From positions 3,134,452-3,198,451 of the forward strand of contig NZ_JHEG04000001.1 in assembly GCF_000760695.4 (NCBI RefSeq): a stretch of DNA of 64,000 nucleotides. The letters run 5' to 3'. The DNA is from Tolypothrix bouteillei VB521301. GTDB lineage: Bacteria > Cyanobacteriota > Cyanobacteriia > Cyanobacteriales > Nostocaceae. Made by a program: the position numbers and the translations under genes. This document shows, piece by piece, positions 19,611-46,202 of the stretch (positions are counted from its first letter, which is position 1; each line of letters begins with the position of its first letter). The notes under the pieces are model-generated. The model was not told the DNA's origin, searched no databases, and saw nothing but the letters and a program-made list of their open reading frames with translations.

Positions 19611-21782
19611 ATGGGTTGGGAAGAACTTACCTCAGTTTACGAGCAACTACATCATTGTGCATTTCAAATTGAAGACATTGCCAGAGTTAAGGAGCGTCAA
19701 CGTATCGCCCGCGACCTGCATGATTCGTTGGGACACGCGCTGACAGCGCTCAATATTCAGTTGCAAACTGCTCTCAAGCTTTGGAAGCTTGACCCTGCTA
19801 AGGCTGAATGTTTTCTCATACAGGCTCAACGGCTTGGCACAACCGCTATGAAGGAGGTGCGGCAATCTGTCTGTTCTTTACGAGCAACAGCAAAGGCGGA
19901 CCAGTCTCACCAGTCTCTAGAACCACTGATTGAATCTTTAGTAGAAGATTTTCGGCAAGTTAGCGACGTATCAATTTCGACTTGTATAACTCTGTCTGCT
20001 ATTTTGCCTCCTGAGGTAAGTACTACACTCTACCGAGTTGTGCAAGAATCTCTAACTAATATTCGCAAGCACGCAGCAGCAACAGCAGTACAAATTAAGA
20101 TTCACCCCACTTCGTATGGAGTGCGGCTTGTAGTTGCTGACAACGGCAAAGGATTTAAACAGGATACCCTATCAAAGGGATTCGGACTTCAGGGGATGGC
20201 AGAACGAGTAGCAGCATTGGGAGGTCAAATAGACATTTATACAGAGCCGGGGAAGGGCTGTCAGATTAGGGCTGAGTTACCCTTACAACAGCAGCCTCCA
20301 GTACAGAAGTCTCTAGATTTTGGCGTTGATGTTTCTCCCTTAAAAGTTGCAGATTACCTAAAGCATTTGGTTCTTGCTGACAAACAATCGTTACAAAAGT
20401 TTGAAGCGAAGCCAAGAAAGCGCAGCCAAATAACAGTCGATTTGCCCTTACAGCAGCAGATTCTCACGCAGAACTCACTAGATTTTGCTGCTAGTGACGC
20501 CACCATAACTATAGTCAAGCCTGTAAAGCCCTTGGTTCTCAGTCGCGATCTCTCAATTCAGTTAGAAGAGATTTTAACCGAATACGTTGGCTCTATTGCC
20601 ACAACCTTGCTGCAGAAACTAACAGAACAAACACAAAATCGTCAAGAACTTGTTACAAAACTACTGTTTTATATTCCCGAGCAGCAACGAACCGAGTTTG
20701 AGCAGCGCTTGTCGTTTCTTTTTGACTCATCCCCCAGCCCAGAGGAAATAATTTCAAGAGACTGGGGAAAAGAGCAGGGAGCCAAAGGAAAGGAAACACC
20801 TTCCCCTTCCTCTTTACCCTTGACGCTTTACCCTAATTTCTCTAAGAATTCTAAGTTACCTCTTCTTCAACTTAACGTTGAAACGGAGCAAGAATTGGGT
20901 GTCAAAATTGCGGTTGAGCAGCCGTTACAAGAGCAAGCTATGGCACAAGAGTGGCGAGATTTTGCTGCTAGTGTCTCTACCTCAGAAGTAGCAGACCTAA
21001 GAGAGCGTTTGGTTCTTTCTAACGAGCAATTGTTGCAGTTGGAAAACATTTTGGCAGAATACATTGGAATCACAATTGCCCCAATGCTATTGCAAGAAGT
21101 CGTAGAACAAACGACGACCTGTCAAGAACTTGTTGCAGAACTATTGCTTTACATTTGTGCTTCACAACGAACTGAATTCGAGCAGCAGTTGTCGTTTCTG
21201 TTTGACTCAAACCCTAGCGTAGATGAAACAACTCAAGAGCACTTTTCCGATCTCAGTTTTCAAACCATCAATGAGAGTTTTATTCGTCAGTGCGAGGAAC
21301 AACTGATTGATTTGATAGGACCGTTTGCTCCGGTGTTGATTCAGGAAACGCTTCAGTCTTCACCTGGAATTTCTGCCTCGGAATTGGTAGAAGCCATAGC
21401 AACAAAAATTCCTGATGCTCAACTAGCTGTCGAATTTCGACAAGCATTAAGCAGTTTTCCTAACATTGAAACAGAGCAAGAAATTTTATCTTACATTCCT
21501 GCCGTTCGGGAAACTGAATTTGAGGAGCAAGTTGCATTTCTGTCTAATCCAGTCTCTAGAGAATATGACCTTGACTTGACCTATCAAAGCATTAATAAGA
21601 ATTTTTTGTACCAATGCGAGCAACAACTAATAGATTTAGTAGGACCGATCGCTCCATTGCTTATTGAGGAAACGCTTGAGTCTTTGCCTGGAATTTCGCG
21701 AGCGGAATTGGTAGAAACAATAGCAGCAAAAATTCCCGATGCTCAAGTGGCTGGCGAATTTCAACGACGGATGGGTCTCTAA
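19611..21782 (+). CDS. NarL-family histidine kinase (soluble) with C-terminal helical repeats
   Basis: The 723-residue protein begins almost directly with the HisKA_3 dimerisation/phosphoacceptor domain: RQRIARDLHDSLGHALTALNIQLQ, phosphoacceptor His37. A HATPase domain follows at about residues 120-225, with N-box VVQESLTNIRKHA, G1 box VVADNGKGF and G2 box GFGLQGMAERVAALGG. No membrane sensor domain precedes it. After about residue 300 come four related helical units (about 306-375, 465-535, 551-610, 659-723) with the pattern L.EYIG..AP.LL.E and ISASELVEAIATKIPDAQ..EF, resembling the DUF8082-type modules of cyanobacterial signalling proteins. A low-complexity Pro/Ser insert lies at about 384-415. 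A GAGGGGG stretch precedes the ATG. The partner regulator is 120 bp downstream. Confidence 0.85.
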   Translation: MGWEELTSVYEQLHHCAFQIEDIARVKERQRIARDLHDSLGHALTALNIQLQTALKLWKLDPAKAECFLIQAQRLGTTAMKEVRQSVCSLRATAKADQSHQSLEPLIESLVEDFRQVSDVSISTCITLSAILPPEVSTTLYRVVQESLTNIRKHAAATAVQIKIHPTSYGVRLVVADNGKGFKQDTLSKGFGLQGMAERVAALGGQIDIYTEPGKGCQIRAELPLQQQPPVQKSLDFGVDVSPLKVADYLKHLVLADKQSLQKFEAKPRKRSQITVDLPLQQQILTQNSLDFAASDATITIVKPVKPLVLSRDLSIQLEEILTEYVGSIATTLLQKLTEQTQNRQELVTKLLFYIPEQQRTEFEQRLSFLFDSSPSPEEIISRDWGKEQGAKGKETPSPSSLPLTLYPNFSKNSKLPLLQLNVETEQELGVKIAVEQPLQEQAMAQEWRDFAASVSTSEVADLRERLVLSNEQLLQLENILAEYIGITIAPMLLQEVVEQTTTCQELVAELLLYICASQRTEFEQQLSFLFDSNPSVDETTQEHFSDLSFQTINESFIRQCEEQLIDLIGPFAPVLIQETLQSSPGISASELVEAIATKIPDAQLAVEFRQALSSFPNIETEQEILSYIPAVRETEFEEQVAFLSNPVSREYDLDLTYQSINKNFLYQCEQQLIDLVGPIAPLLIEETLESLPGISRAELVETIAAKIPDAQVAGEFQRRMGL

Positions 21783-21902
21783 GTCGATTGGATTCCCTTA
21801 GATTCCTTCAGATTCTGCAGCGCTGTGAACCTAATGGTAGATTCGCCTCCAAATACTACGCAGCAGAATATCCATACATGAGTTTGACTTGAGGTGAATT
21901 AG

Positions 21903-22556
21903 ATGATTCGTCTGTTACTGGTAGATGACCAAAGTTTAGTGCGTGACGGTATTAAAGCTATGCTTAGCTTAGAACCCGATTTGCAGATTGTTGGTACGGC
22001 TGACAACGGAAAAACCGCGATCGAGCTAGTAGAAGCACTGCAACCAGATGTGGTTTTGATGGATGTGCGGATGCCGATTATGGATGGTAAGGAAGCTACT
22101 CGCTCGATCGTCCAACACTTTCCAAAAGTTAAAGTCATTGTTCTCAGTACCTTTGATGATGATGAATACATTACCGAGTCGATACGGGCTGGAGCAAAGG
22201 GTTATTTGCTCAAAGATATGTTATCTGAAGAATTGGCAGAGTCAATTCGGTTTGTCCATCGCGGTTACTCACAATTAGCTCCCGGACTGCTGGAAAAGTT
22301 GGTCACTCAAGCTGCGGATTCAGCATCGAGGCGTAGCGAGACAACTCCAACAGTTTTGGCTGAGTTAACTGCTAGGGAACGAGATGTGTTGCGCTTAATT
22401 GGTAGGGGTGCTACCAATCGCGAAATTGCTCAGCAGCTTATTATCTCCGAAGGTACGGTGAAGACTTACGTTACCAATCTTTTTAACCGTTTGAACTTGA
22501 AGAACCGCTCGCAGCTTGCCATTTATGCTAATTCTGTAAGCTGGAATGAAAGTTAG
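21903..22556 (+). CDS. NarL/FixJ-type response regulator
   Basis: The 217-residue two-domain transcription factor has a receiver domain (acidic pair D8-D9, phosphoacceptor Asp54 in VVLMDVRMP, switch Thr in VLSTFDDD, Lys in GYLLKDM). A LuxR-type helix-turn-helix follows (LTARERDVLRLIGRGATNREIAQQLIISEGTVKTYVTNLFNRLNLKNRSQ). Its position right after the HisKA_3 kinase makes it the expected phosphorylation target. It would bind DNA as a dimer. Its targets are not known; the two-block motif 45 bp behind it is a candidate for testing. Confidence 0.93.
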   Translation: MIRLLLVDDQSLVRDGIKAMLSLEPDLQIVGTADNGKTAIELVEALQPDVVLMDVRMPIMDGKEATRSIVQHFPKVKVIVLSTFDDDEYITESIRAGAKGYLLKDMLSEELAESIRFVHRGYSQLAPGLLEKLVTQAADSASRRSETTPTVLAELTARERDVLRLIGRGATNREIAQQLIISEGTVKTYVTNLFNRLNLKNRSQLAIYANSVSWNES

Positions 22557-22600
22557 GACAAACATTGACGAAAGTTTTAAGAAGATCTACTTATTGGCAA

Positions 22601-22660
22601 ACTTTAGTCAGGGTGAATTTATCTATTTGTTGAAGTAGAAATTAAGACATTTTTCAGATG
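22601..22660 (+). promoter_or_regulatory. Conserved two-block motif, site 1
   Basis: Block 1 ACTTTAGTCA (22601-22610) and block 2 AAGACATTTTTCAGATG (22644-22660) lie 70 bp before the histidine kinase gene at 22731. The same two blocks at almost the same spacing recur at 36679-36739 and, inverted, at 48206-48266. Confidence 0.6.
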
Positions 22661-22730
22661 ATTATTAGTAGTTAACAATTTAGGATAGAAGTATAAAGTG
22701 ATTGAAAAGTATTTTTATCAAAACTAGATT

Positions 22731-23597
22731 ATGTTTGTTCGCGATATCAACAAATGCCAACAGCCTTTCTTGACTTTACAAAGGGCACAAGAAGCACCAG
22801 AACAAAAAGTGCGAAAGCTTCTTGCTAAATTAAGTTATATGAACGAGCAATTATGTCATGAGAAAGCTTTACGTTTGCGGGCGGAGGCGGAACTAGAAAA
22901 GTCTCTTGCATTGACAAAGAAAGAGCCATTAGTTTCTATGATTTGCCATGAATTCCGTTCTTCACTGAACGTTATCTCCTTCTCCACTAGTTTACTTAAA
23001 CGTCACCATCACAATTGGAGTGAGGAGAAAACACTACAGTATTTCCAGCGTCTTCAAACAACAGTCGAACAGCTCGGTCAACTGATGGACGAACTTCTAA
23101 CGATCGAGAGAGCAGAAGCAGGAAAGCTAGAGTTTGAGCCTACATCGGTTAATTTGATCTCATTCTGCCATGATATATTAACTCAAATGAATTTGAGTGA
23201 AAACTCTCAGAACGCAATTAATTTTGTGATACAAGGTGATAGCAAAGCAGTTTGTATAGATAAAAAATTATTGCAGCCTGTTCTTACGAATTTATTATCG
23301 AACGCGATTAAATATTCCCCCAATGGTAGTACAGTTGATATGATACTCTCCTATCTAGATGAAGAAGTTATTTTTACGATAAAAGATAGGGGAATTGGCA
23401 TTCCAAAAGCAGATCGACAACGGCTGTTTGAGCCATTTCATCGTGGTGGAAATGTCGGTGATAAACCGGGTACTGGATTGGGTTTAGCAATTGTCAAAAA
23501 ATTTGTGGATATACATGGTGGGGAAATCATTATAGAGAGTGAAGTGGGTGTTGGTACTACGTTTACGATCGCATTGCCATGCCAAATGTGTCACTAA
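22731..23597 (+). CDS. Soluble HisKA-type sensor histidine kinase
   Basis: The 288-residue kinase has no membrane segment. Residues 20-65 form a charged coiled coil (KVRKLLAKLSYMNEQLCHEKALRLRAEAELEKSL). The HisKA domain follows with phosphoacceptor His73 in MICHEFRSSLNVISFS, then HATPase_c with N-box LLSNAIKYSPNG, G1 IKDRGIGIPKADRQRLFEPFHRG and G2 GTGLGLAIVKKFVDIHGG. The sensor input must come from a partner or from the coiled coil. It forms a pair with the AraC-type regulator 117 bp downstream. The conserved two-block motif sits in its upstream region. Confidence 0.9.
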   Translation: MFVRDINKCQQPFLTLQRAQEAPEQKVRKLLAKLSYMNEQLCHEKALRLRAEAELEKSLALTKKEPLVSMICHEFRSSLNVISFSTSLLKRHHHNWSEEKTLQYFQRLQTTVEQLGQLMDELLTIERAEAGKLEFEPTSVNLISFCHDILTQMNLSENSQNAINFVIQGDSKAVCIDKKLLQPVLTNLLSNAIKYSPNGSTVDMILSYLDEEVIFTIKDRGIGIPKADRQRLFEPFHRGGNVGDKPGTGLGLAIVKKFVDIHGGEIIIESEVGVGTTFTIALPCQMCH

Positions 23598-23713
23598 TAC
23601 CTACACAGTGAGGTAATACCAACTTGAGAAAAGAAGGCAACAAATAATTGAGCGAAATTAAGTCCAAGCAGGACTTTGTCAATCTATAATCGAAAATCCA
23701 AAATATACAAACT

Positions 23714-24505
23714 ATGACAAAAGTTTTAGTAATTGAAGATGAAGTAGAAAGTCGAAATATATTTCTTGAATGCCTCGAAGCAGAAGGGTTTGATACTATC
23801 AGTGCAGAAAACGGTCTGATAGGCGTTCAGAAAGCACAAGAAAACTTGCCCGACCTCATTATTTGTGACGTTTCCATGCCAGAATTAGATGGTTATGGTG
23901 TCCTCACCTCATTACGCCAAAACACGGGAACAGCAAGGATTCCCTTTATTTTTCTTAGTGCCAAGAGTACAAAGGCTGAGGTGCGTCAAGGCATGACGCT
24001 TGGTGCTGATGACTATCTCACCAAGCCTACTACAGCAGAGGAATTATTAGAAGCGATCGCTACCCGACTGAAAAAACAAGCAACTATTAAGGAGTGGTAC
24101 GAGACTCAATCACCACAAGTCACACCACCTCCTGCTAATACCGCTCCATCAGCCGACTCCCAGTCATCCTCTCCTGCTAGCCCTCAGTTGAAGGAGGTTT
24201 TTGACTTTATCGAAGCCAATTATCACCAAGCTATAAGCTTAAGTGACGTAGCCCAAGCCGTGGGTTATTCCCCAGCATACTTAACTGACTTAATGCGACG
24301 CCAAACAGGAAAGACGGTACATCAATGGATCGTAGAGCACCGAATGACAAAGGCATGCTCATTGCTTTTGGAAACCAAGCAGTCAGTAGAACAGATTGCG
24401 GAAGCAGTGGGTTATCAATATGTAGGGTGTTTCTTTCGTCAATTTCGTATCAGCTTTGGAACTACCCCTCAAGTTTGGCGCAACCAGAAGATACGCAAAG
24501 ATTGA
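23714..24505 (+). CDS. Response regulator with AraC-type DNA-binding domain
   Basis: The 263-residue protein has a receiver domain at residues 1-125 (D9, phosphoacceptor Asp52 in IICDVSMPELDG, FLSAKS, DDYLTKP) and a Pro/Ser-rich linker (about 135-155). Residues about 160-260 form the double helix-turn-helix of AraC regulators: FDFIEANYHQAISLSDVAQAVGYSPAYLTDLMRRQTGKTVHQWI, then MTKACSLLLETKQSVEQIAEAVGYQYVGCFFRQF. It probably receives phosphate from the adjacent HisKA kinase. Targets are unknown. Confidence 0.92.
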   Translation: MTKVLVIEDEVESRNIFLECLEAEGFDTISAENGLIGVQKAQENLPDLIICDVSMPELDGYGVLTSLRQNTGTARIPFIFLSAKSTKAEVRQGMTLGADDYLTKPTTAEELLEAIATRLKKQATIKEWYETQSPQVTPPPANTAPSADSQSSSPASPQLKEVFDFIEANYHQAISLSDVAQAVGYSPAYLTDLMRRQTGKTVHQWIVEHRMTKACSLLLETKQSVEQIAEAVGYQYVGCFFRQFRISFGTTPQVWRNQKIRKD

Positions 24506-26647: not shown

Positions 26648-27943
26648 CTATTTGTAGTTTTCTAAAAAGACGTTGGCTTGTAGCTTGTACGAAAGTTGAT
26701 CAACGCTTGAGTGAACTAGAGCAAGACTCAAGCTAGACTTAGTTCTGGTTTTAGACTTTTGCTGATTGCGTTGCAGAAAGACACCAGCAATTAAAACACT
26801 GACACACAGCAAAGCAGGAACTGCCGAAGGTTCGGGGATAGTTGTTGGTTTAGGCTGAACTCCCAGCGATAAGATCGCTCGATCTGCTCGAATCAAACCA
26901 TAACCATATCTGGAATCAAAACCGGACAAAGGACTTTCAGCTGTATTTCTCAAAGCGTTATAGATTTCAGTAGGCGTTGCGTTCGGATTTGCCTGTAGTA
27001 GCAGCGCTGCGACTGCAGCAGTATACGGAGCAGACACCGAACTTCCGAAGAAGCTAAAGAATTGAGGATTGTCATAAGGACGAGCTTCTCCAGTCAAGTT
27101 GAAAGAAGTTGGTAGACCATCCGGAGCTACAACATCCGGTTTTAGAGATCCTGGATTCCCTTCCGAAGAGAAAGGCTCTATTTGCCCCTGCGTAATAGTA
27201 AGACCAGATCGAGTTGTGTAAAACTGTGCATTCCCATAGTACACAGCTCCGACACTCAATGCATTTGGGTTATTGACGTGCCCGTATATTGGTAAATTGG
27301 GAAACTCATTACCTGCGGAACTAAAGTAAGAAATTCCCCGATCGAAGACTGCGTTAATTGCTTGGTTGATCGGTCCGTCTGGCGGCTCCAAATCCTGCAA
27401 GTTTGAAGGTACATCAGGAATACTTTGGGGGAATAAACCTCTATCATCCACAATAATATTGGCTCCGACAGCCCCTAGAGCTTGAATACCCTGACTAATA
27501 ACATTTACGTCTCCCGCACCCGAGTAAAACGCTAATTTAGCGCCTGGAGCTATAGCATGAACGATCTGCAAGATAGCGCGACCCTCATCTGTAGGATCGT
27601 CCTCAGTAATGGTAGGGTCTGCATCTGAATAGTCCTGTAAAACTTGAATATTTGAGGGTAGGTAACCGTCGGCAATATTAGTGGCATAGTTATCGACCTT
27701 CCCCAAACTGTCAAAACTGTTTGGCGAAGTATTAAAGCTGTCAGATATTACACCGATGGTGATTCCAGTACCATCCAAACCATAGCGATCGCGTAAAATA
27801 TCGACTCCTGTGGCTTTGGCAGCGGCTTCAATTGGTAAGGAGAAGGTAGCTGCTTGAACCTTGGCAACAAAGCCTACCAGGGCAACAGTTGTTGCGATCG
27901 CCCCTGAAGTAACAGTTTTTTGAAAGAGTTTCACATTTTTCAT
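26648..27943 (-). CDS. Secreted S8 (subtilisin-like) serine peptidase with PEP-CTERM region
   Basis: The 431-residue exported protease has a signal peptide at residues about 1-32 (AIATTVALVGFVAKVQA, then AT). The catalytic triad as read is Asp68 (GVISDSF), His129 (AILQIVHAIAPGA) and Ser302 (FGSSVSAPYTAAVAALL), with oxyanion Asn212 in SSAGN. The catalytic serine motif has S in place of the usual T (GSS rather than GTS). A PEP-CTERM-like segment (IPEPSAVPALLCVSVLIAGVFLQRNQQ) lies at about 367-395. About 36 further residues follow it, which is longer than the usual short basic end. It is the nearest peptidase to the precursor array (380 bp away, same strand), but a role in leader removal is only a possibility. 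Confidence 0.85.
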   Translation of the reverse strand: MKNVKLFQKTVTSGAIATTVALVGFVAKVQAATFSLPIEAAAKATGVDILRDRYGLDGTGITIGVISDSFNTSPNSFDSLGKVDNYATNIADGYLPSNIQVLQDYSDADPTITEDDPTDEGRAILQIVHAIAPGAKLAFYSGAGDVNVISQGIQALGAVGANIIVDDRGLFPQSIPDVPSNLQDLEPPDGPINQAINAVFDRGISYFSSAGNEFPNLPIYGHVNNPNALSVGAVYYGNAQFYTTRSGLTITQGQIEPFSSEGNPGSLKPDVVAPDGLPTSFNLTGEARPYDNPQFFSFFGSSVSAPYTAAVAALLLQANPNATPTEIYNALRNTAESPLSGFDSRYGYGLIRADRAILSLGVQPKPTTIPEPSAVPALLCVSVLIAGVFLQRNQQKSKTRTKSSLSLALVHSSVDQLSYKLQANVFLENYK

Positions 27944-28325
27944 AGCGTTTACAAACCTTCACAAGATTTTTCGTAAAACGTAAAATTTTATACTTATTTT
28001 GTCTGGTTAAGCTTACACTTAAACCATTAGCTTTCCGTACTATCGTGCCTTCTGCTTCTTTAGGAGTATTTAGCGTGCAATTTCTACATAAAAGCTACAG
28101 CTTGAAAGGACAACGAATACGGAAACTAGAATATCAATATAAAAACTACAACTTCAATTTGAATTCTTTAGGAAAGACAATCAAAAAAATTAACAGTCAT
28201 TGAATGAGAGACTTAAGTGCTAATTATGCAACAAAACCCAGTGAACGAAGAAGAATTCTCTATAAAAGTTCACTGGGTTATAACAATTTGTCACTGGACG
28301 TAATTACCAAAAAGTTCAGTTTAGC
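27944..28325. other. Gene-free stretch between precursor array and subtilase
   Basis: Contains the hairpin at 28235-28279 that probably ends the precursor transcript, and the upstream region of the subtilase gene. No further precursor-like ORF was found here. Confidence 0.5.
28235..28279 (-). terminator. Candidate terminator of the precursor array
   Basis: AACCCAGTGAAC (28235-28246) pairs perfectly with GTTCACTGGGTT (28268-28279) across a 21-nt loop. It lies 46 bp behind the last precursor gene; on the minus strand TTTT follows. Confidence 0.6.
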
Positions 28326-28529
28326 TTAGACGGATTTGTTGGCGTTCCGGGCAAAACTCCAAGCAACGCAAGCTTTTACGAAACTCCAACCCAGACATAC
28401 GCCACCTGCAACTTCTTCGAGAGCTTCATCAGATAATTCGCCTTCGGTCTTGGGTGCAGTTGATTCCGTGTTGAACTCGGTGTTGGTATCGAGAGCTTGA
28501 GAGATGGCTTGATTGAGTTCGTCTTGCAT
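28326..28529 (-). CDS. Class II lanthipeptide precursor, variant A (promoter-distal)
   Basis: The 67-residue peptide has a 43-residue leader ending ELSDEALEEVAGG and a 24-residue core. The leader starts MQDELNQAISQALD, unlike the KQV of the repeated copies. The core reads VCLGWSFVKACVAWSF, then ARNANKSV; it differs from the repeated core at two positions (FVKA for FAKV). The double glycine is where the C39 peptidase should cut. The two Cys and three Ser are the candidates for thioether rings by the LanM at 32132. It is separated from the rest of the array by 277 bp and may have its own promoter. Ribosome-binding site AGGAGAC. Confidence 0.85.
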   Translation of the reverse strand: MQDELNQAISQALDTNTEFNTESTAPKTEGELSDEALEEVAGGVCLGWSFVKACVAWSFARNANKSV

Positions 28530-28806
28530 TTTTTTGTCTCCTATTTTTTAATTTGTTGAGCGAGTGAAAGTCAGTAGCTCGCAAACTTGGGTAAATCAAT
28601 GTAGAAATAAGGGTTTCAGCCATTGTCACTCTGATAGGTAAAGAGCATTTGTTTAATAGAAATCGCCTTGTGAAAGTGAAGGTCGTGACCTTGGCCGAAA
28701 TACTGATGAGAATGTGTTTTCTCAATACAAGAGCGTCCTACTAAAATCTTCATGTAGTAACACTTCTAAAAACTTTGCGATCTACTGACAGTAATTGGTA
28801 TAAGTC
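28530..28806. other. Spacer between variant A and variant B precursors
   Basis: This 277-bp gap is five times the usual 55-bp spacer. It holds a 45-codon minus-strand ORF at 28616-28753 (begins MKILVGRSCIEK) with a weak ribosome-binding site, which I cannot assign and do not call a gene. A CGTGACCTT segment and GAGAATGTGTTTTCTC palindrome are present. Confidence 0.4.
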
Positions 28807-29016
28807 TTAGACGGATTTGTTAGCGTTATAAACAAAACTCCAACCCCTGCAAGGTTTTGGTTTTAGATGAGTCCAACCCAGACATATGCCACCTGCAACT
28901 TCTTCGAGGGCTTCATCGGATAATTCGCCTTCGGTCTTTGGTGCAGTTGATTCCGTGTTGAACTCGGTGTTGGTGTCGAGAGCTTGAGAGATAACTTGTT
29001 TGAGTTCGTCTTGCAT
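28807..29016 (-). CDS. Class II lanthipeptide precursor, variant B (divergent core)
   Basis: The leader protein sequence is the same as in the nine repeated copies, and the DNA up to the double glycine is almost identical. The core is different and two residues longer: ICLGWTHLKPKPC, then RGWSFVYNANKSV. Thr replaces the first Ser, and a KPKP segment widens the gap between the two C-x-x-W-S/T units. The upstream spacer is also identical to the array spacer. The change is thus confined to the core coding part. Confidence 0.87.
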   Translation of the reverse strand: MQDELKQVISQALDTNTEFNTESTAPKTEGELSDEALEEVAGGICLGWTHLKPKPCRGWSFVYNANKSV

Positions 29017-29071
29017 TTTTTTGTCTCCTATTGTTTCAATTTGTCAAATGAGTGAATTGTTGAGCTAAATC

Positions 29072-29275
29072 TTAAACGGATTTGTTGGCGTTCCGGGCAA
29101 AACTCCAAGCAACGCAAACTTTTGCGAAACTCCAACCCAGACATACGCCACCTGCGACTTCTTCGAGGGCTTCATCGGATAATTCGCCTTCGGTCTTTGG
29201 TGCAGTTGATTCCGTGTTGAACTCGGTGTTGGTGTCGAGAGCTTGAGAGATAACTTGTTTGAGTTCGTCTTGCAT
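29072..29275 (-). CDS. Lanthipeptide precursor, repeated type, copy 9
   Basis: The 67-residue peptide has a leader of 43 residues (MQDELKQVISQALDTNTEFN ... ELSDEALEEVAGG) and a core of 24. The core holds two similar hexapeptides, CLGWSF (residues 45-50) and CVAWSF (54-59), and ends NANKSV. Predicted modification is dehydration of Ser49, Ser58 and perhaps Ser66, with Cys45 and Cys54 adding to form rings. The acidic, helical leader with terminal GG is the type recognised by LanM and PCAT proteins. This copy is the farthest from the promoter of the nine. Confidence 0.92.
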   Translation of the reverse strand: MQDELKQVISQALDTNTEFNTESTAPKTEGELSDEALEEVAGGVCLGWSFAKVCVAWSFARNANKSV

Positions 29276-29330
29276 TTTTTTGTCTCCTATTGTTTCAATT
29301 TGTCAAATGAGTGAATTGTTGAGCTAAATC

Positions 29331-29534
29331 TTAAACGGATTTGTTGGCGTTCCGGGCAAAACTCCAAGCAACGCAAACTTTTGCGAAACTCCAACCCAGA
29401 CATACGCCACCTGCGACTTCTTCGAGGGCTTCATCGGATAATTCGCCTTCGGTCTTTGGTGCAGTTGATTCCGTGTTGAACTCGGTGTTGGTGTCGAGAG
29501 CTTGAGAGATAACTTGTTTGAGTTCGTCTTGCAT
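29331..29534 (-). CDS. Lanthipeptide precursor, repeated type, copy 8
   Basis: Protein identical to the gene at 29072-29275; the surrounding 259-bp unit is also the same. Confidence 0.92.
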   Translation of the reverse strand: MQDELKQVISQALDTNTEFNTESTAPKTEGELSDEALEEVAGGVCLGWSFAKVCVAWSFARNANKSV

Positions 29535-29589
29535 TTTTTTGTCTCCTATTGTTTCAATTTGTCAAATGAGTGAATTGTTGAGCTAAATC

Positions 29590-29793
29590 TTAAACGGATT
29601 TGTTGGCGTTCCGGGCAAAACTCCAAGCAACGCAAACTTTTGCGAAACTCCAACCCAGACATACGCCACCTGCGACTTCTTCGAGGGCTTCATCGGATAA
29701 TTCGCCTTCGGTCTTTGGTGCAGTTGATTCCGTGTTGAACTCGGTGTTGGTGTCGAGAGCTTGAGAGATAACTTGTTTGAGTTCGTCTTGCAT
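29590..29793 (-). CDS. Lanthipeptide precursor, repeated type, copy 7
   Basis: Same peptide and same spacer as copy 9; own AGGAGAC ribosome-binding site. Confidence 0.92.
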   Translation of the reverse strand: MQDELKQVISQALDTNTEFNTESTAPKTEGELSDEALEEVAGGVCLGWSFAKVCVAWSFARNANKSV

Positions 29794-29848
29794 TTTTTTG
29801 TCTCCTATTGTTTCAATTTGTCAAATGAGTGAATTGTTGAGCTAAATC

Positions 29849-30052
29849 TTAAACGGATTTGTTGGCGTTCCGGGCAAAACTCCAAGCAACGCAAACTTTT
29901 GCGAAACTCCAACCCAGACATACGCCACCTGCGACTTCTTCGAGGGCTTCATCGGATAATTCGCCTTCGGTCTTTGGTGCAGTTGATTCCGTGTTGAACT
30001 CGGTGTTGGTGTCGAGAGCTTGAGAGATAACTTGTTTGAGTTCGTCTTGCAT
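29849..30052 (-). CDS. Lanthipeptide precursor, repeated type, copy 6
   Basis: Same peptide as copy 9, no substitutions seen. Confidence 0.92.
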   Translation of the reverse strand: MQDELKQVISQALDTNTEFNTESTAPKTEGELSDEALEEVAGGVCLGWSFAKVCVAWSFARNANKSV

Positions 30053-30107
30053 TTTTTTGTCTCCTATTGTTTCAATTTGTCAAATGAGTGAATTGTTGAG
30101 CTAAATC

Positions 30108-30311
30108 TTAAACGGATTTGTTGGCGTTCCGGGCAAAACTCCAAGCAACGCAAACTTTTGCGAAACTCCAACCCAGACATACGCCACCTGCGACTTCTTC
30201 GAGGGCTTCATCGGATAATTCGCCTTCGGTCTTTGGTGCAGTTGATTCCGTGTTGAACTCGGTGTTGGTGTCGAGAGCTTGAGAGATAACTTGTTTGAGT
30301 TCGTCTTGCAT
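30108..30311 (-). CDS. Lanthipeptide precursor, repeated type, copy 5
   Basis: Same peptide as copy 9; middle unit of the array. Confidence 0.92.
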   Translation of the reverse strand: MQDELKQVISQALDTNTEFNTESTAPKTEGELSDEALEEVAGGVCLGWSFAKVCVAWSFARNANKSV

Positions 30312-30366
30312 TTTTTTGTCTCCTATTGTTTCAATTTGTCAAATGAGTGAATTGTTGAGCTAAATC

Positions 30367-30570
30367 TTAAACGGATTTGTTGGCGTTCCGGGCAAAACTC
30401 CAAGCAACGCAAACTTTTGCGAAACTCCAACCCAGACATACGCCACCTGCGACTTCTTCGAGGGCTTCATCGGATAATTCGCCTTCGGTCTTTGGTGCAG
30501 TTGATTCCGTGTTGAACTCGGTGTTGGTGTCGAGAGCTTGAGAGATAACTTGTTTGAGTTCGTCTTGCAT
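30367..30570 (-). CDS. Lanthipeptide precursor, repeated type, copy 4
   Basis: Same peptide as copy 9, no substitutions seen. Confidence 0.92.
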   Translation of the reverse strand: MQDELKQVISQALDTNTEFNTESTAPKTEGELSDEALEEVAGGVCLGWSFAKVCVAWSFARNANKSV

Positions 30571-30625
30571 TTTTTTGTCTCCTATTGTTTCAATTTGTCA
30601 AATGAGTGAATTGTTGAGCTAAATC

Positions 30626-30829
30626 TTAAACGGATTTGTTGGCGTTCCGGGCAAAACTCCAAGCAACGCAAACTTTTGCGAAACTCCAACCCAGACATAC
30701 GCCACCTGCGACTTCTTCGAGGGCTTCATCGGATAATTCGCCTTCGGTCTTTGGTGCAGTTGATTCCGTGTTGAACTCGGTGTTGGTGTCGAGAGCTTGA
30801 GAGATAACTTGTTTGAGTTCGTCTTGCAT
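30626..30829 (-). CDS. Lanthipeptide precursor, repeated type, copy 3
   Basis: Same peptide as copy 9, no substitutions seen. Confidence 0.92.
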   Translation of the reverse strand: MQDELKQVISQALDTNTEFNTESTAPKTEGELSDEALEEVAGGVCLGWSFAKVCVAWSFARNANKSV

Positions 30830-30884
30830 TTTTTTGTCTCCTATTGTTTCAATTTGTCAAATGAGTGAATTGTTGAGCTAAATC

Positions 30885-31088
30885 TTAAACGGATTTGTTG
30901 GCGTTCCGGGCAAAACTCCAAGCAACGCAAACTTTTGCGAAACTCCAACCCAGACATACGCCACCTGCGACTTCTTCGAGGGCTTCATCGGATAATTCGC
31001 CTTCGGTCTTTGGTGCAGTTGATTCCGTGTTGAACTCGGTGTTGGTGTCGAGAGCTTGAGAGATAACTTGTTTGAGTTCGTCTTGCAT
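30885..31088 (-). CDS. Lanthipeptide precursor, repeated type, copy 2
   Basis: Same peptide as copy 9, no substitutions seen. Confidence 0.92.
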   Translation of the reverse strand: MQDELKQVISQALDTNTEFNTESTAPKTEGELSDEALEEVAGGVCLGWSFAKVCVAWSFARNANKSV

Positions 31089-31143
31089 TTTTTTGTCTCC
31101 TATTGTTTCAATTTGTCAAATGAGTGAATTGTTGAGCTAAATC

Positions 31144-31347
31144 TTAAACGGATTTGTTGGCGTTCCGGGCAAAACTCCAAGCAACGCAAACTTTTGCGAA
31201 ACTCCAACCCAGACATACGCCACCTGCGACTTCTTCGAGGGCTTCATCGGATAATTCGCCTTCGGTCTTTGGTGCAGTTGATTCCGTGTTGAACTCGGTG
31301 TTGGTGTCGAGAGCTTGAGAGATAACTTGTTTGAGTTCGTCTTGCAT
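31144..31347 (-). CDS. Lanthipeptide precursor, repeated type, copy 1
   Basis: Same peptide as copy 9. Its upstream spacer carries the first differences from the consensus unit, marking the edge of the homogenised block. Confidence 0.92.
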   Translation of the reverse strand: MQDELKQVISQALDTNTEFNTESTAPKTEGELSDEALEEVAGGVCLGWSFAKVCVAWSFARNANKSV

Positions 31348-31402
31348 TTTTTTGTCTCCTGTTGTTTCAATTTGTCAAATGAGTGAATTGTTGGGCTAAA
31401 TC

Positions 31403-31606
31403 TTAAACGGATTTGTTGGCGTTCCGGGCAAAACTCCAAGCAACGCAAGCTTTTATGAAACTCCAGCCCACACATACGCCACCTGCAACTTCTTCGAGGG
31501 CTTCATCGGATAATTCGCCTTCGGTCTTGGGTGCGGGGAGTTCTGTGTTGAACTCGGTGTTGGTGTCGAGAGCTTGAGAGATGGCTTTGTTGAGTTCGTC
31601 TTGCAT
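31403..31606 (-). CDS. Lanthipeptide precursor, variant D
   Basis: The 67-residue leader plus core differs from the repeated type in the leader (DELNKAIS; ELPAPK in place of ESTAPK) and in the core: VCVGWSFIKACVAWSF, then ARNANKSV. The Cys and Ser positions and the NANKSV tail are unchanged. It is the second gene after the promoter; spacer to the next copy 55 bp. Confidence 0.9.
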   Translation of the reverse strand: MQDELNKAISQALDTNTEFNTELPAPKTEGELSDEALEEVAGGVCVGWSFIKACVAWSFARNANKSV

Positions 31607-31659
31607 TTTTTTGTCTCCTATTGTTTTAATTTGTCAAATGAGTGAATTGTTGAGTTAAG

Positions 31660-31863
31660 TTAGACGGATTTGTTGGCGTTATGAATAAAACTCCACTTAA
31701 CGCAAACTTTTGCGAAACTCCAACCCAGACATACGCCACCTGCAACTTCTTCGAGGGCTTCATCGGATAATTCGCCTTCAGTCTTGGGTGCGGGGAGTTC
31801 TGTGTTGAACTCGGTGTTGGTGTCGAGAGCTTGAGAGATAGCTTGATTGAGTTCGTCTTGCAT
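31660..31863 (-). CDS. Lanthipeptide precursor, variant E (promoter-proximal)
   Basis: First gene of the array. The leader has DELNQAIS and ELPAPK. The core is VCLGWSFAKVCVKWSF, then IHNANKSV, with changes only in the second unit and the residues just before the constant tail. Translation is set by AGGAAAC, slightly weaker than the AGGAGAC of the other copies. The start codon lies about 50 nt behind the predicted transcription start. Confidence 0.9.
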   Translation of the reverse strand: MQDELNQAISQALDTNTEFNTELPAPKTEGELSDEALEEVAGGVCLGWSFAKVCVKWSFIHNANKSV

Positions 31864-31918
31864 TTTCCTGTTTCCTATTTTCTAATTTGTTTCTGTCAAT
31901 TTATCTTTGATACTTATC

Positions 31919-31948
31919 AGAATAGCGATATGTAAATAAAAGCGTCAA
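31919..31948 (-). promoter_or_regulatory. Predicted sigma-70-type promoter of the precursor array
   Basis: On the minus strand TTGACG (-35, 31948-31943) and TATTCT (-10, 31924-31919) are separated by 18 nt. This would start a transcript about 50 nt before the first precursor. It lies in the 268-bp divergent region shared with lanM. Confidence 0.5.
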
Positions 31949-32131
31949 TTTGATTTTTTTAGGAAGACAAACAAAAAAAATAAGAGTAAATAATAACAGG
32001 AAAACTTTTAGACTATAAAAATTGCAGTCTTTTCTAAAAAAATTGAATTGTAATTCTTGTTTTAATTTTCTAAACTAAATATCGAAAGAGAATCAGTCAA
32101 GTATTTTGGCAATCAGATAGGGTAAACATAA

Positions 32132-35100
32132 ATGGAAGTTTCACAACAAGATTTACGAAAAATAGTAGAACAAGCTAGTAATATTGAAGAAAGATTGAGC
32201 AATTGCTTTGTTCCAAATGAAGCTGAAGACAACAATAAGCTGGCTATGTCTCGCTTGAAAACTTGGTGTCAGCTTGTTACACAAGGGAATTCAGAAAAGT
32301 TAGCCAAACGCCTTGTATGGGACAATCTAGATGTTAGTACAATGGTTAGGGTTCTCGGTGCTGTCCGCCTTGCTGATGGGCAACAACTCCCCTCATGGAC
32401 AGACACTTTGCGGGAAGCTTTGCAAACTGATTGGGAAACAGCTTATGCAAGCGTCTATCATTGTTTGGAAGCTGAAAAGCCAATTCCCTTTGAAGAAGTT
32501 TATCTACCCTTTGTTCATGTAGCGCGGCAAAAACTTATTGCACGAGCTAATGCTAATTTGCACCTGCTGTCCGAAGCAGTTCACTTATATTTGGAATGTC
32601 AGCTACTATTAAAATTAGCGTCTCTTTGCGCTCAATCTCTAGAATTTGAGTTTTCACAATTTAAAGCAGTGAAGCAGTCTGCGTCCATATCTTTACCAGA
32701 ACAACAGGCTAGCCATTCTAACGTACAGTACCAAAATTTTGTTAAAGACTTGAAAGCGGGAGGGTTATTATCTTTTTTCCAGAAGTACAGTGTTCTAGCG
32801 CGATTGGTGGCAACAGCAGTGGATTTCTGGGTAGAGGAAAAAGCGGAATTCCTTCAGCGTTTGGCATCAGATTTACCCAGCATCCAGCAAAACTTCCAAG
32901 AAAGTACAGGTCAAGTCGTTAAAATCCAAGGAAATTTCTCTGACTCTCACAATCAAGGACGCTCCGTCATAGCGCTGACCTTTGCATCCGGCTTAAAACT
33001 CATATACAAACCTAGAGGCTTAGCCTTGGAAAGTGCTTATTTTCAGTTACTGACTTGGTGCAATCAGCATTTTGTAGAGATGCATACAAAGTCTTTGCAC
33101 CCGTTCAAAATACTAAAACTTATCAACAGCACCACCCACGGATGGATGGAGTATGTAGAGCATTTACCTTGTGAAGATGAAACTGCTGTAGAGCGATACT
33201 ACCAACGTGCTGGGATGGTTTTGTGCCTGCTCTACCTGCTGCAAGGGAACGACTGCCATGAGGAAAATCTAATCGCTAGTGGGGAACATCCGGTGCTAGT
33301 TGATCTAGAAACACTTGTACATCCTCGTGCTCGTGAGGTTAACCCTACAGAGGAAGTAGAAGCGCAATCTTTAGTAAATCAGCAATTTTTTCAAGATTCG
33401 GTGCTGCGGACTGGACTGTTACCAAGATGGGAATTGGGCGCAGATGGAGGAACTGCTCACGATATTAGTGGTTTGGGGGGTGGAAATGGCGGGGAAATTC
33501 CTATTCGCATACAAAAGTGGCAGAACATTAACACTGACAATATGACATTGGAATACGAGTCTGGTTTCATGTCACCCTCTGCTAATATACCTCTCCTTAA
33601 TGGGCTCGTTGTGTCATCCCACGATTACGTCAATGAAATCGCAGATGGTTTTCGGCAGATGTATCAGTTCCTGGTACACAGGCAAGAAGAACTTTTAGCA
33701 GCTGACAGTCCATTAGCCGCCCTAGCCCGTCAGAAAGTTCGATTTTTGTTTCGCAATACCCAAGTATACGGTCATATTCTAGAAAAAACTCTTAATCCGA
33801 AGTTTTTACAACATGGTGTAGATCGCAGTATTCAACTAGATGTCTTAAGTCGGGCATTTTTGGCAGCCGATGAAAAACCCCCAATTTGGTCAATTCTTGG
33901 GGTTGAGATCCGAGCAATGGAACAAATGGATATTCCTTATTTCATTGCTAACTCCAGTAGTGATGCTCTGGCACTTAATTCAGATCTAATTGTTAAGGGA
34001 TATTTTAGAGAACCTAGCTATAACCGAATGATTTCTTGTCTGCAACAGCTTAATGACACAGATTTAGCTCAACAAATCTCAATCATTCGGGGTTCTTTTT
34101 ACTCGCGGGTTGCTCAAGGAATGACCAGTACTCTATCCACCGAGCGTGCTAGTGCTAATCTAAATTTGGATGCACTTGCTCCCATAACATCAACACAACT
34201 GGTGCAGGAAGCGGTAGAGATTGCAAAGGACCTGCAACAACGAGCAATCTACGCCTCCAATGGTAGCGCTACTTGGATTGGGATGGCATATCTCCCCAAG
34301 GCAGGACGGATGCAACTTCAGCCTTTAAGTGATGGTTTATATGATGGTGTTTGTGGAGTTTCTTTATTTTTAGCAGCGCTGGCAAAAGTAACTGGTGATG
34401 CAAGATTTCGCGATGTAGCATTGAGCGCCTTACAAAACATAAGAAAGCCCTTGCAGGACATACGAGACCCAAACATTCAGCATAAAATTGCCAAGCAAAG
34501 TGGTATCGGTGGCGGCATTGGATTGGGGTCTATAGTGTATACTTTGGTACGAGTCAGTCAGTTTCTAGATGAACCGGATCTGTTGGACACTGCCAATTGT
34601 GCCGCTTCGTTCATCACTCAGGAAAGCATTGCCAGCGATCGCTCATTTGACACAATAGCAGGAGCGGCTGGAGCAATACTGGGATTACTGACTCTGTACC
34701 AAACAAAGGCAAACCCAACTGTTCTCGATCGCGCACAAGCTTTGGGTTATCATTTACTCAACAACCGGACTAAGAGTGAGACTGGATTTAGAGCTTGGGC
34801 TACCCTAGAAGGCAAGTTAGCAACGGGATTTTCCCACGGTGCAGCTGGTATTGCCTACGCTTTATTACGATTGTATAAAACCACACAAGACCCAGTTTTT
34901 CTAGAAGCAGCAGAGGAAGCGATCGCCTACGAACGCAGTATCTTTTCACCCACTCAAGGAAACTGGCCAGATGTAAGAAATTTCTCCTTAAATAAGAGCA
35001 AGCCATCTTTTATGACGACTTGGTGTCACGGTGCTCCTGGTATTGGTTTAGCCCGTTTGGGGAGTCTGGAGATTCTGGATACAGCAGAAATTCGGCAAGA

Positions 35101-35419
35101 AATTGCAGTTGCTATAAATACAACACAGCAGTTTGGTTTACACAATATTGACCATCTCTGTTGCGGTAATTTCGGCAGAATGGAAGTTTTATTGGTGGGA
35201 GCGTGCAAGCTGTCGCGTTCGGATCTTTGGGATACCGTTCAAAAACAAGCAGCTTGGGTTGTTGCAAGAGCAAAGCAAGCTGGTAGTTTTTCTCTGTTTC
35301 CCGAACTTTCTGGAGATGTTTATAACCCTGGTTTCTTTCAAGGTAGTGCTGGAATCGGTTATGAACTCTTGAGGCTAGCATATCCGGAATCGCTTCCTTC
35401 CGTATTGTTGTGGGAGTAG
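32132..35419 (+). CDS. lanM: Class II lanthipeptide synthetase (LanM), CCG-type cyclase
   Basis: The 1095-residue bifunctional cytosolic enzyme phosphorylates and eliminates Ser/Thr of precursor peptides, then adds Cys thiols to make (methyl)lanthionine rings. The N-terminal dehydratase (about residues 180-600, DUF4135) shows the kinase-like residues Lys293 (IYKPRG), Asp374 and His376 (GNDCHEENL), Asp391/Glu393 (VDLETL) and the HDISGLGG segment. The C-terminal LanC-like cyclase (about 720-1090) has repeated GxG turns (GLYDGVCGVS, GIGGGIGLG, GFSHGAAGIAYAL, FQGSAGIGYELL). Its zinc ligands are Cys965 (TWCHG), Cys1010 and Cys1011 (HLCCGNFG). The CCG in place of CHG is the mark of the ProcM-like group, known for broad substrate use. 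Divergent from the 13 precursor genes, which are its evident substrates. Confidence 0.96.
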   Translation: MEVSQQDLRKIVEQASNIEERLSNCFVPNEAEDNNKLAMSRLKTWCQLVTQGNSEKLAKRLVWDNLDVSTMVRVLGAVRLADGQQLPSWTDTLREALQTDWETAYASVYHCLEAEKPIPFEEVYLPFVHVARQKLIARANANLHLLSEAVHLYLECQLLLKLASLCAQSLEFEFSQFKAVKQSASISLPEQQASHSNVQYQNFVKDLKAGGLLSFFQKYSVLARLVATAVDFWVEEKAEFLQRLASDLPSIQQNFQESTGQVVKIQGNFSDSHNQGRSVIALTFASGLKLIYKPRGLALESAYFQLLTWCNQHFVEMHTKSLHPFKILKLINSTTHGWMEYVEHLPCEDETAVERYYQRAGMVLCLLYLLQGNDCHEENLIASGEHPVLVDLETLVHPRAREVNPTEEVEAQSLVNQQFFQDSVLRTGLLPRWELGADGGTAHDISGLGGGNGGEIPIRIQKWQNINTDNMTLEYESGFMSPSANIPLLNGLVVSSHDYVNEIADGFRQMYQFLVHRQEELLAADSPLAALARQKVRFLFRNTQVYGHILEKTLNPKFLQHGVDRSIQLDVLSRAFLAADEKPPIWSILGVEIRAMEQMDIPYFIANSSSDALALNSDLIVKGYFREPSYNRMISCLQQLNDTDLAQQISIIRGSFYSRVAQGMTSTLSTERASANLNLDALAPITSTQLVQEAVEIAKDLQQRAIYASNGSATWIGMAYLPKAGRMQLQPLSDGLYDGVCGVSLFLAALAKVTGDARFRDVALSALQNIRKPLQDIRDPNIQHKIAKQSGIGGGIGLGSIVYTLVRVSQFLDEPDLLDTANCAASFITQESIASDRSFDTIAGAAGAILGLLTLYQTKANPTVLDRAQALGYHLLNNRTKSETGFRAWATLEGKLATGFSHGAAGIAYALLRLYKTTQDPVFLEAAEEAIAYERSIFSPTQGNWPDVRNFSLNKSKPSFMTTWCHGAPGIGLARLGSLEILDTAEIRQEIAVAINTTQQFGLHNIDHLCCGNFGRMEVLLVGACKLSRSDLWDTVQKQAAWVVARAKQAGSFSLFPELSGDVYNPGFFQGSAGIGYELLRLAYPESLPSVLLWE

Positions 35420-44762: not shown

Positions 44763-46202
44763 TTATTGGATACCGCTCCAGGATCTAAGGATGGGAAAGA
44801 CAAAGGTGATGGGCGCTTGTTCCTCCACAGTCACTCGTACAGAGGTAGTAATTCCAGGAGACATTTTCATCTGCGGACCTTTAGAAGAAGACCACTTGTA
44901 GTGACTGAAGGTGGAAGTGTCTGGTTGAAGTTCGGCTATGACTTGGAGGTGAGGACCCTGAGTCATTAAACTTTCTACGATTTCGGGGTTGCCTATCATA
45001 TTAGAGGCACCCTCTTTAGTAATAGGAAAAGAAGATACTTTCTTAACAGTGCCCACAATTCCGCCAAAGCGTTCTCGCTTAACTGTAGAGGGTGTAATTT
45101 GCAATGTCATACCCTTTTGAATCTTCTTGCCTTCGCTCACTGGAAAAAATGCAACGCTCGCTAGTTTAGCAGATGGCTCTTGCGCTTCTATTGACCCAAT
45201 ACGAGTTCCTTGACTGAGAATTTGTCCGGGAGTTATGGTAAGTTCCAAAATGCGTCCGGTATATTCGCTCTTTATATGGCTATTGTTATTTAATTGCAAT
45301 TCTATTTGAGTAATATTCCGTTTTAATTCTTGAATTTGATTTTGTCGGGTAATTGCGGATTGAAAATTTTGCTCAGCCAGAATTTTTTCCTTACTATCTA
45401 GTTCTTTTAACTGGGTTTTAATATCAGCAATTTGGCTCCTATTTTCACGATAGGATTTTTCAGCTTGAACCTGATTGATATCCAATTGCTTTAACTGGTC
45501 TTCAAGATCGGCAATTTTTTTAATACCATCAAGGTAAGTTTGTTGCGCTTCTAAGAGCGTATCTTCTGAAATCGCCCCTTCGATCTTTAACTTTTTGCGC
45601 CGCTCGAGTCTGTCTTTGAGAGTAGGAGTCAAAGACTTAGATTCCAAAAGGCGTTGTTTGAGATTTTGTCGCTGTTGCTGAATTGCGCCTATGTCTTTAT
45701 CCCTAATAATTGGAGTTAGGGACTGAGCTTCTACAAGGCGTTGTTGCAAGCTTTGGCGCTGCTGTTGCATTGCTATGATTTCCAGCTTGCTGCGTTGGGT
45801 TTGAAGCAAACTAGCATCCTGATTTTGAGCTTTGAGTTCTGCTAGCTTGGCATACTGCTGCAAAAGTTGTTTTTGCAGTTCTGATTGGGAGATTGTAGCT
45901 AGCACCTGTCCTTTCCTAACGAAATCCCCAACACGTACATTTATGCTTTGCAACTGACCGGAGCTTGATGCTTGAAACGTCACAACCTTGCTAGGATAAA
46001 CAAGTACTCCCTGACCCGTAACGGTAATAGGGATACGACCCACGATACTCCAGCTTAGCCCTGCTGCAACCAGTGTGCCTAAAGCAGCCAACGGTAACCA
46101 CTTCTTAGGGCTGACGACTTGCATCAGTTGATCTAGCTGTTCGGGAGAAGATGAATGTTCTAAAGCTTGTTGGCGAAACAAGTTATTTTTTGGAGTTACC
46201 AT
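44763..46202 (-). CDS. HlyD-type adaptor of the NHLP bacteriocin export system
   Basis: The 479-residue periplasmic adaptor has one membrane segment at about 35-55 (WLPLAALGTLVAAGLSWSIVG), then the biotinyl-lipoyl half GVLVYPSKVVTFQASSSGQLQSINVRVGDFVRKGQVLATIS. A very long coiled-coil hairpin (about 115-320, with the repeated QQQRQ.LKQRL.ESKSLTP unit seen twice) and the second lipoyl half with GRILELTITPGQILSQGTRIG follow. It connects the inner-membrane exporters to the outer membrane. The order cNMP protein, HlyD, PCAT, ABC fits NHLM systems. Confidence 0.9.
   Translation of the reverse strand: MVTPKNNLFRQQALEHSSSPEQLDQLMQVVSPKKWLPLAALGTLVAAGLSWSIVGRIPITVTGQGVLVYPSKVVTFQASSSGQLQSINVRVGDFVRKGQVLATISQSELQKQLLQQYAKLAELKAQNQDASLLQTQRSKLEIIAMQQQRQSLQQRLVEAQSLTPIIRDKDIGAIQQQRQNLKQRLLESKSLTPTLKDRLERRKKLKIEGAISEDTLLEAQQTYLDGIKKIADLEDQLKQLDINQVQAEKSYRENRSQIADIKTQLKELDSKEKILAEQNFQSAITRQNQIQELKRNITQIELQLNNNSHIKSEYTGRILELTITPGQILSQGTRIGSIEAQEPSAKLASVAFFPVSEGKKIQKGMTLQITPSTVKRERFGGIVGTVKKVSSFPITKEGASNMIGNPEIVESLMTQGPHLQVIAELQPDTSTFSHYKWSSSKGPQMKMSPGITTSVRVTVEEQAPITFVFPILRSWSGIQ

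What the first reader, a model, noticed from the sequence alone, without database searches (positions are those of the whole stretch)
28326..31863. Thirteen-gene lanthipeptide precursor array with nine identical copies
Thirteen precursor genes lie in tandem on one strand; nine code for the same 67-residue peptide in repeat units of exactly 259 bp that look identical. Known multi-precursor LanM systems such as prochlorosins usually have many different cores with one shared leader. Here the cell instead holds many copies of one core, which suggests selection for gene dosage or a very recent amplification.
Basis: seen in the sequence. Interest (0 to 1): 0.93.

Follow-up and report, generated by a model that had tools for sequence, protein, structure and literature searches.

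The report
Nine-copy cyanobacterial lanthipeptide gene array
A filamentous cyanobacterium carries thirteen tandem genes for a small, probably ring-containing secreted peptide, nine of them perfect copies, so a peptide system that often varies its product has here multiplied one version; similar copy runs are already known in other bacteria.

Summary
Thirteen precursor ORFs lie on the minus strand at 28326-31863. Nine have identical 204-bp CDSs for one 67-aa peptide, and a perfect 259-bp period runs for 2463 bp. They lie beside a ProcM-type (CCG) class II synthetase and an NHLM-type exporter set. The assembly has 2 contigs, so a repeat artefact is unlikely, but no reads were available.

Most likely this is a class II lanthipeptide operon whose cores diversify between strains while recombination among 90-95% alike units amplifies whichever core is current. 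Runs of 2-3 identical precursors with other cores occur in 3 of 14 related LanM loci and in a fourth fetched later; nine is the longest I saw. Identity through the noncoding spacers supports recent amplification or homogenisation; selection for dosage is untested.

Side findings: Cys-X3-Ser/Thr is strongly enriched in the family's cores, predicting rings with Cys before Ser, as shown for MppE; and the 43-aa leader looks like an NHLP leader without its middle ~55 residues. Identical-precursor arrays are already published (13 and six copies in Bacillus cereus), so this is a new variant of a known kind.

The parts
31660..31863 (-). A1, precursor, 67 aa, core VCLGWSFAKVCVKWSFIHNANKSV; first gene of the array
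31403..31606 (-). A2, precursor, 67 aa, core VCVGWSFIKACVAWSFARNANKSV
29072..31347 (-). A3-A11: nine identical precursor genes (67 aa, core VCLGWSFAKVCVAWSFARNANKSV), one per 259-bp unit (204-bp CDS + 55-bp spacer with an AGGAGA ribosome-binding-site-like sequence)
28807..29016 (-). A12, precursor, 69 aa, core ICLGWTHLKPKPCRGWSFVYNANKSV; leader DNA identical to A3-A11 up to CDS nt 119
28326..28529 (-). A13, precursor, 67 aa, core VCLGWSFVKACVAWSFARNANKSV; last gene, after a 277-bp spacer
28898..31360 (.). stretch of perfect 259-bp periodicity (2463 bp)
28235..28279 (.). 12-bp inverted repeat 3' of A13 followed by a U-rich stretch on the array strand; terminator-like
   Evidence: z -2.78; 4 of 200 shuffles as stable; not listed by the scan, which allows loops of 3-8 only and found 0 sites in the region against 4.9 in shuffles
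31864..32131 (.). 268-bp divergent intergenic region between A1 and lanM, presumed promoter region
   Evidence: promoter-like matches in 28000-32300 no more frequent than in shuffles (5 against 5.1)
32132..35419 (+). lanM, class II lanthipeptide synthetase, 1095 aa, TIGR03897 1011 bits, CCG zinc motif
26648..27943 (-). S8 (subtilase) peptidase 3' of the array, possible trimming protease
39483..42419 (-). NHLM ABC transporter without peptidase domain (TIGR03797)
42507..44759 (-). NHLM ABC transporter with C39 peptidase (TIGR03796, PF03412), presumed Gly-Gly cleavage and export
44763..46202 (-). NHLM HlyD-type adaptor (TIGR03794)
46271..47371 (-). cyclic-nucleotide-binding bacteriocin-transport-associated protein (TIGR03896)
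19611..24505 (+). regulators: HisKA_3 kinase 19611, LuxR-type response regulator 21903, HisKA kinase 22731, AraC-type response regulator 23714
   Evidence: at least one of the four has a match in 12 of 14 related loci, some partial or weak

Best explanation
This is a class II lanthipeptide cluster of a filamentous cyanobacterium. The 13 precursors are probably one operon read away from the divergent lanM. LanM (ProcM-like, CCG zinc site) dehydrates Ser/Thr of the 24-26-aa cores and closes two small rings, in the main core Cys2-Ser6 and Cys11-Ser15, each with Cys N-terminal to the Ser; the C39 peptidase transporter cuts after Gly-Gly and exports the peptide, and the neighbouring S8 peptidase may trim it. 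The nine identical genes arose by recent tandem amplification and/or gene conversion (recombination between like leader/spacer stretches), making one core 9 of 13 gene doses. Across relatives the same process repeatedly amplifies whichever core is current while the core itself diversifies. Shown: array anatomy, cluster content, recurrence in relatives, CX3[S/T] enrichment. Inferred: transcription unit, ring pattern, export, recombination mechanism, biological role (extracellular antagonism or signalling).
For: Array anatomy and perfect period including spacers, with diverged copies on both flanks as expected for recombination within an array. The homogenised tract ends in A12 at CDS nt 119, about 10 nt short of the core. 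One LanM in the genome, TIGR03897 over 1011 bits. CCG motif in 18 of 18 LanMs compared, against CHG in LicM2 and CylM. NHLM exporter set in the cluster. Gene order partly kept in the Scytonema/Brasilonema-type loci. Runs of identical precursors with other cores in L037 (3 copies, 0 nt differences), L039 (3, 0-1 nt), L043 (2, 0 nt) and L074 (3 at protein level); the nearest LanM by tree (L037, 100/99) has amplified a different core. Ser/Thr at +4 from Cys: 175 for 258 Cys against a shuffle mean of 27.6 (max 42 of 300 shuffles), and 75 for 126 in cores under 50% identical (13.9, max 26). Published CX3[S/T] rings: MppE Cys79-Ser83 (PMC11791876, first of three parts read), NpuA Cys5-Thr9 and proposed Cys14-Ser18 (PMC13060382, passages).
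Against: No expression, reads or mass data. The promoter scan gives nothing above chance and the terminator scan lists none. The core shuffle control ignores common descent, and the cores were gathered by similarity to the query; the pattern used to collect them also missed A13. 24 of 122 Cys-containing cores have a Ser/Thr before the first Cys, so forward rings are possible in some. Ser/Thr at -5 from Cys is also raised (57 against 26.8, max 41), as the twin-motif spacing implies, so Ser6-Cys11 cannot be excluded. The exporter genes lie about 7.6-14.3 kb from the array and were not linked to these precursors by experiment.
Confidence: 0.75

Rival explanations
1. The copy number is an assembly artefact: fewer real copies, expanded by the assembler, or differences polished away.
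For: Copies are perfect repeats and no reads were inspected; identical units are the class most affected by assembly.
Against: The array sits inside a 9.49-Mb contig of a 2-contig assembly, and 2.5 kb is short for long reads (that long reads were used is inferred from the contig number). Diverged copies flank it. Short-read assembly tends to shrink such arrays or to end contigs in them; in L038 the contig begins 673 bases before lanM.
Confidence: 0.08
2. The amplification is neutral: a recombination by-product with no benefit from dosage, soon to collapse.
For: Zero differences over 2463 bp means the copies are too young or too homogenised to show selection. Small runs recur with other cores, as a mutational process alone would give.
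Against: Nothing tested here speaks against it; all nine ORFs are intact, but with no mutations at all that is uninformative.
Confidence: 0.4
3. Copy number is selected: many doses of one precursor raise output of a peptide needed in quantity.
For: Nine of 13 genes encode one core; each of the nine has its own AGGAGA site; identical-precursor arrays exist in B. cereus (PMC7268733 section 6, PMC3951391 passages).
Against: No copy-number comparison among strains was possible (one genome per species is held; the one same-genus genome listed, G193, has no match).
Confidence: 0.45

Closest known systems
Prochlorosins (ProcM / ProcA, marine picocyanobacteria)
   Same: CCG-type LanM with precursors of conserved Gly-Gly leader; PMC10783134 (passages) describes CCG LanMs, conserved leaders and less conserved cores
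   Different: Leader here does not reach the Nif11 cut-off (12.3 against 32.3 bits); precursors form one tight array dominated by one core rather than many different cores
Cerecidins and other identical-precursor clusters of Bacillus cereus
   Same: Several identical precursor genes in one cluster: six in strain Q1, 3+3 in FRI-35 (PMC3951391 passages), 13 in a class III cluster (PMC7268733 section 6)
   Different: Different phylum; their leaders, cores and zinc motifs were not compared here
MppE/MppM lanthipeptide of Moorena producens
   Same: Cyanobacterial LanM closing one lanthionine between Cys79 and Ser83 of the core ACWRWSG, a C-X-X-W-S motif as in both halves of this core (PMC11791876, part 1 of 3 read)
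   Different: Nif11-like 77-aa leader, 7-aa core, halogenase and prenyltransferase genes present; one precursor gene named
Nostolysamides (NpuA/NpuM, Nostoc punctiforme)
   Same: ProcM-clade LanM forming a CX3T ring and a proposed CX3S ring, with both ring directions (PMC13060382, abstract and passages)
   Different: Acylated Lys; four rings, three of them overlapping
NHLP-leader precursors (TIGR03793)
   Same: Leader ends match: consensus MQDELKNVISQAMNTNSEFE / ELSDEALEAVAGG in the short forms and MHEELKQIISQAMNTRFEFE / ELSEEALETVAGG in 9 long relatives; in L041, L044, L074 and L075 the long forms lie beside LanMs 65-73% identical to this one
   Different: The ~55-residue middle is absent and the model cut-off is not reached (14.3 against 50.9 bits)

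Membership tests
Class II lanthipeptide cluster | LanM synthetase with dehydratase and LanC-like cyclase domains | tested here: met
   TIGR03897 1011.4 bits, cut-off 304; PF13575 (DUF4135) and PF05147
Class II lanthipeptide cluster | Adjacent precursors with leader and Ser/Thr/Cys core | tested here: met
   13 ORFs, Gly-Gly leader, 2 Cys and 3 Ser/Thr in each core (read)
Class II lanthipeptide cluster | (Methyl)lanthionine in the product | not testable with these tools
   needs co-expression and MS
ProcM-type (CCG) LanM | Cys in place of the third zinc ligand His | tested here: met
   HLCCGNFGR against LCHG in LicM2 and CylM
Prochlorosin precursors | Nif11-type leader (TIGR03798) | tested here: not met
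   12.3 bits, cut-off 32.3
NHLP precursors (TIGR03793) | Full nitrile-hydratase-like leader | tested here: not met
   14.3 bits, cut-off 50.9; 4 of 4 long-leader relatives scanned score 95.0-99.5 bits; ends of the leader conserved
NHLM export system | C39-peptidase ABC, second ABC and HlyD adaptor | tested here: met
   TIGR03796, TIGR03797, TIGR03794 all over cut-off; C39 domain PF03412
Identical-precursor lanthipeptide arrays | Several tandem genes for the same precursor | tested here: met
   nine identical CDSs

The most novel reading that the evidence does not exclude
Cyanobacterial CCG-LanM clusters switch between two modes on the same machinery: a library mode (several different cores per strain) and a monoculture mode, in which one core is amplified and kept identical by gene conversion whose tracts stop near the leader-core junction, so that copy number tunes dose and the array can be re-seeded with a new core. 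The window would be the extreme monoculture case, running on a leader reduced to the two ends of an NHLP leader.
Probability: 0.3. Interest if true: 0.65.

Novelty: new variant of a known kind. Interest (0 to 1): 0.48.

Why it matters
ProcM-type systems are cited as natural combinatorial libraries. A relative that has multiplied one core, beside strains with different cores on the same leader, gives a natural series for asking what favours diversity and what favours dose. The conserved CX3[S/T] spacing in otherwise variable cores gives a testable ring prediction for a whole family, and the shortened leader suggests which parts of an NHLP leader a LanM may really need.

Tried and rejected
Viral origin: one scan of viral contigs with the precursor alignment matched 339 stretches by pattern, none of them encoding a relative. 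Rfam: no family at gathering score in 24000-50000. Per-unit promoters: the spacers hold TTGACA but no -10 at the right distance by eye, and the scan lists no site on the array strand inside the array (it lists one on the + strand in the A12-A13 spacer), so a single operon was preferred. Wider survey: the order-level search matched 13 of 388 genomes and does not list several relatives such as G020, G026 and G086; they may not have been drawn, and at most 15 candidates a genome were scored, so its blanks are not evidence of absence. PF28158 is listed for a few relatives but my Pfam scan of one of them, P0029, did not report it; not used. P0003, an A1-like protein with a shifted stretch in its leader on a 5.75-Mb contig, hints at a second assembly of a near strain; I did not get its DNA. 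Structure prediction, fold search and covariance models were not used. ProcM paper PMC11667668 was searched for the zinc site without result. Limits of the core sets: the script required a pattern that A1 and A13 do not fit, so A13's core is absent (A1's core entered through P0003); one search's 52 cores include two cut by locus ends; one search dropped cores under 15 aa and 3 proteins without a recognised leader end, and one search listed 120 of 128 hits. One search's 41 short precursors include those two cut ones and P0003. Precursors in loci were found by ATG-start ORFs with a leader-end pattern, so others may be missed. In one search rows under 25% query coverage, and ABC rows under 40% identity, were dropped.
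Full report
Observation. Searches confirm the array in full: 13 minus-strand ORFs at 28326-31863, nine with identical 204-bp CDSs at a 259-bp step, and 2463 bp of unbroken 259-bp periodicity. The six pairings among A1, A2, A13 and the array copy differ by 11-21 nt (A12 is 6 nt longer and was not counted). The window lies in a 9.95-Mb, 2-contig genome (contig 9,494,340 bp). A search of that genome with the precursor finds these 13 genes only, and a LanM search finds one LanM.

What it is. The divergent neighbour (32132-35419) is a LanM (TIGR03897, 1011 bits). Aligned with the solved LicM2 and CylM it has Cys where they have the zinc-site His; 18 of 18 LanMs compared share CCG. PMC10027976 and PMC10783134 (passages) tie CCG to promiscuous ProcM-like enzymes. 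Further along lie a complete NHLM export set and a cyclic-nucleotide-binding protein; on the array's other side an S8 peptidase and two-component regulators. tblastn of 16 window proteins against 14 related LanM loci shows much of this order kept in the Scytonema/Brasilonema-type loci, with losses and rearrangements in others (several loci end at contig ends). An S8 peptidase hit of 65% identity or more is present in 7 of these 14 loci, and hits of 66.7% and 64.6% in two of three loci fetched later.

Relatives. Precursor relatives were found in 16 of 217 family genomes including the window's own. Of 14 LanM loci, 4 show one precursor (one of them, L038, at a contig end) and 10 show two or more; in 6 of the 10 all cores differ, and in 4 at least two cores are the same. 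Identical precursors: L037 Brasilonema angustatum, three (0 nt differences, 350-bp unit); L039 Tolypothrix campylonemoides, three (0-1 nt); L043 Scytonematopsis contorta, two (0 nt). In L046 two precursors share a core but differ at 3 nt, one leader residue. In the LanM tree the window pairs with L037 (100/99), whose amplified core is unlike this one, so core change and amplification both happened since those two parted, if the clusters descended together. By contrast Scytonema sp. HK-05 has at least six different cores on locus tags between 02700 and 02760. Draft assemblies tend to collapse such repeats, so counts in relatives are lower bounds.

How the copies arose. Identity runs through the noncoding spacers, so protein-level selection cannot explain it. 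Outer copies are diverged on both flanks, the usual pattern for unequal recombination or gene conversion inside an array. The identical tract ends within A12 after CDS nt 119, in codon 40, just before the core at codon 44. Whether dosage is selected remains open.

Predicted product. Over 125 distinct family cores, Ser/Thr lies four residues after Cys 175 times for 258 Cys (shuffle mean 27.6, max 42); in 61 cores under 50% identical, 75 times for 126 (13.9, max 26). In one search, 33 of 52 cores had two such motifs; the offset from the first Ser/Thr to the second Cys varied (5 in 19, 6-9 in 14), whereas the within-motif spacing is fixed by that selection. This favours rings within each motif, Cys first. 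Against it: Ser/Thr at -5 is raised too (57 against 26.8), 24 of 122 Cys-containing cores have a Ser/Thr before the first Cys, the shuffles ignore descent, and A13 was missed by the collecting pattern. MppE (C-W-R-W-S) and NpuA (Cys5-Thr9) are experimental precedents (PMC11791876, PMC13060382). The tail N-A-N is nearly fixed (N19 and N21 in 20 of 20, A20 in 19 of 20 24-aa cores); its role is unknown.

Leader. The first 20 and last 13 leader residues of 41 short precursors match those of nine long NHLP-leader relatives; about 55 central residues are absent in the short ones. Four of four long ones scanned exceed the TIGR03793 cut-off; the window's precursor does not. The eight LanMs with this short leader form one clade (96/100), with long-leader LanMs outside it. 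I infer loss of the middle, but the tree outside that clade is unresolved and the direction is not proven. PMC10027976 (passages) links NHLP leaders to CHG LanMs and Nif11 leaders to CCG LanMs; in L041, L044, L074 and L075 NHLP-type leaders lie beside CCG LanMs.

Literature. Seen: PMC7268733 section 6 and passages; PMC3951391, PMC3140520, PMC2887384, PMC10027976, PMC10783134, PMC12328550, PMC12715784, PMC13060382 and PMC11667668 passages only; PMC11791876 part 1 of 3. PMC3140520 reports cyanobacterial precursors densely arrayed, one up to sixteen copies. I saw no report of this array or of this shortened leader in the listings of searches or in those passages; the library covers open-licence PMC papers only and the listings were cut.

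Verdict. Real, well-delimited and informative; the longest identical run I saw in this family, but of a kind already described.

Noticed in passing
window 47600-47833 and 47881-48078 (-): Two small ORFs with Gly-Gly-type leader ends beside the cyclic-nucleotide-binding transport gene; possible further bacteriocin-like precursors whose tails lack Cys.
   Followed up: no
A2, A3-A11 and A13 cores in 28326-31606: Eleven of the 13 genes encode cores of exactly the same mass, because the differences are swapped Ala/Val and Leu/Ile residues.
   Followed up: partly
L047:453-647: A precursor with the same MQDEL leader type but a His/Gly repeat core without Cys, Ser or Thr, which LanM could not cyclise.
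   Followed up: no
L076:6242-7925: Three precursors with a 23-aa leader (MLDELKTNEGELTDEALEAVAGG in two, one variant) beside a 65% identical LanM: a still shorter leader.
   Followed up: partly
L040:9317-9472: One of four precursors has a core of only VCLYTSRCV.
   Followed up: no
window 36958-38952 (+): A Tll0287-like/HAMP gene and a ParA/MinD-like gene each have matches near lanM in 8 of 14 related loci (two of the Tll0287 matches partial); role unknown.
   Followed up: partly
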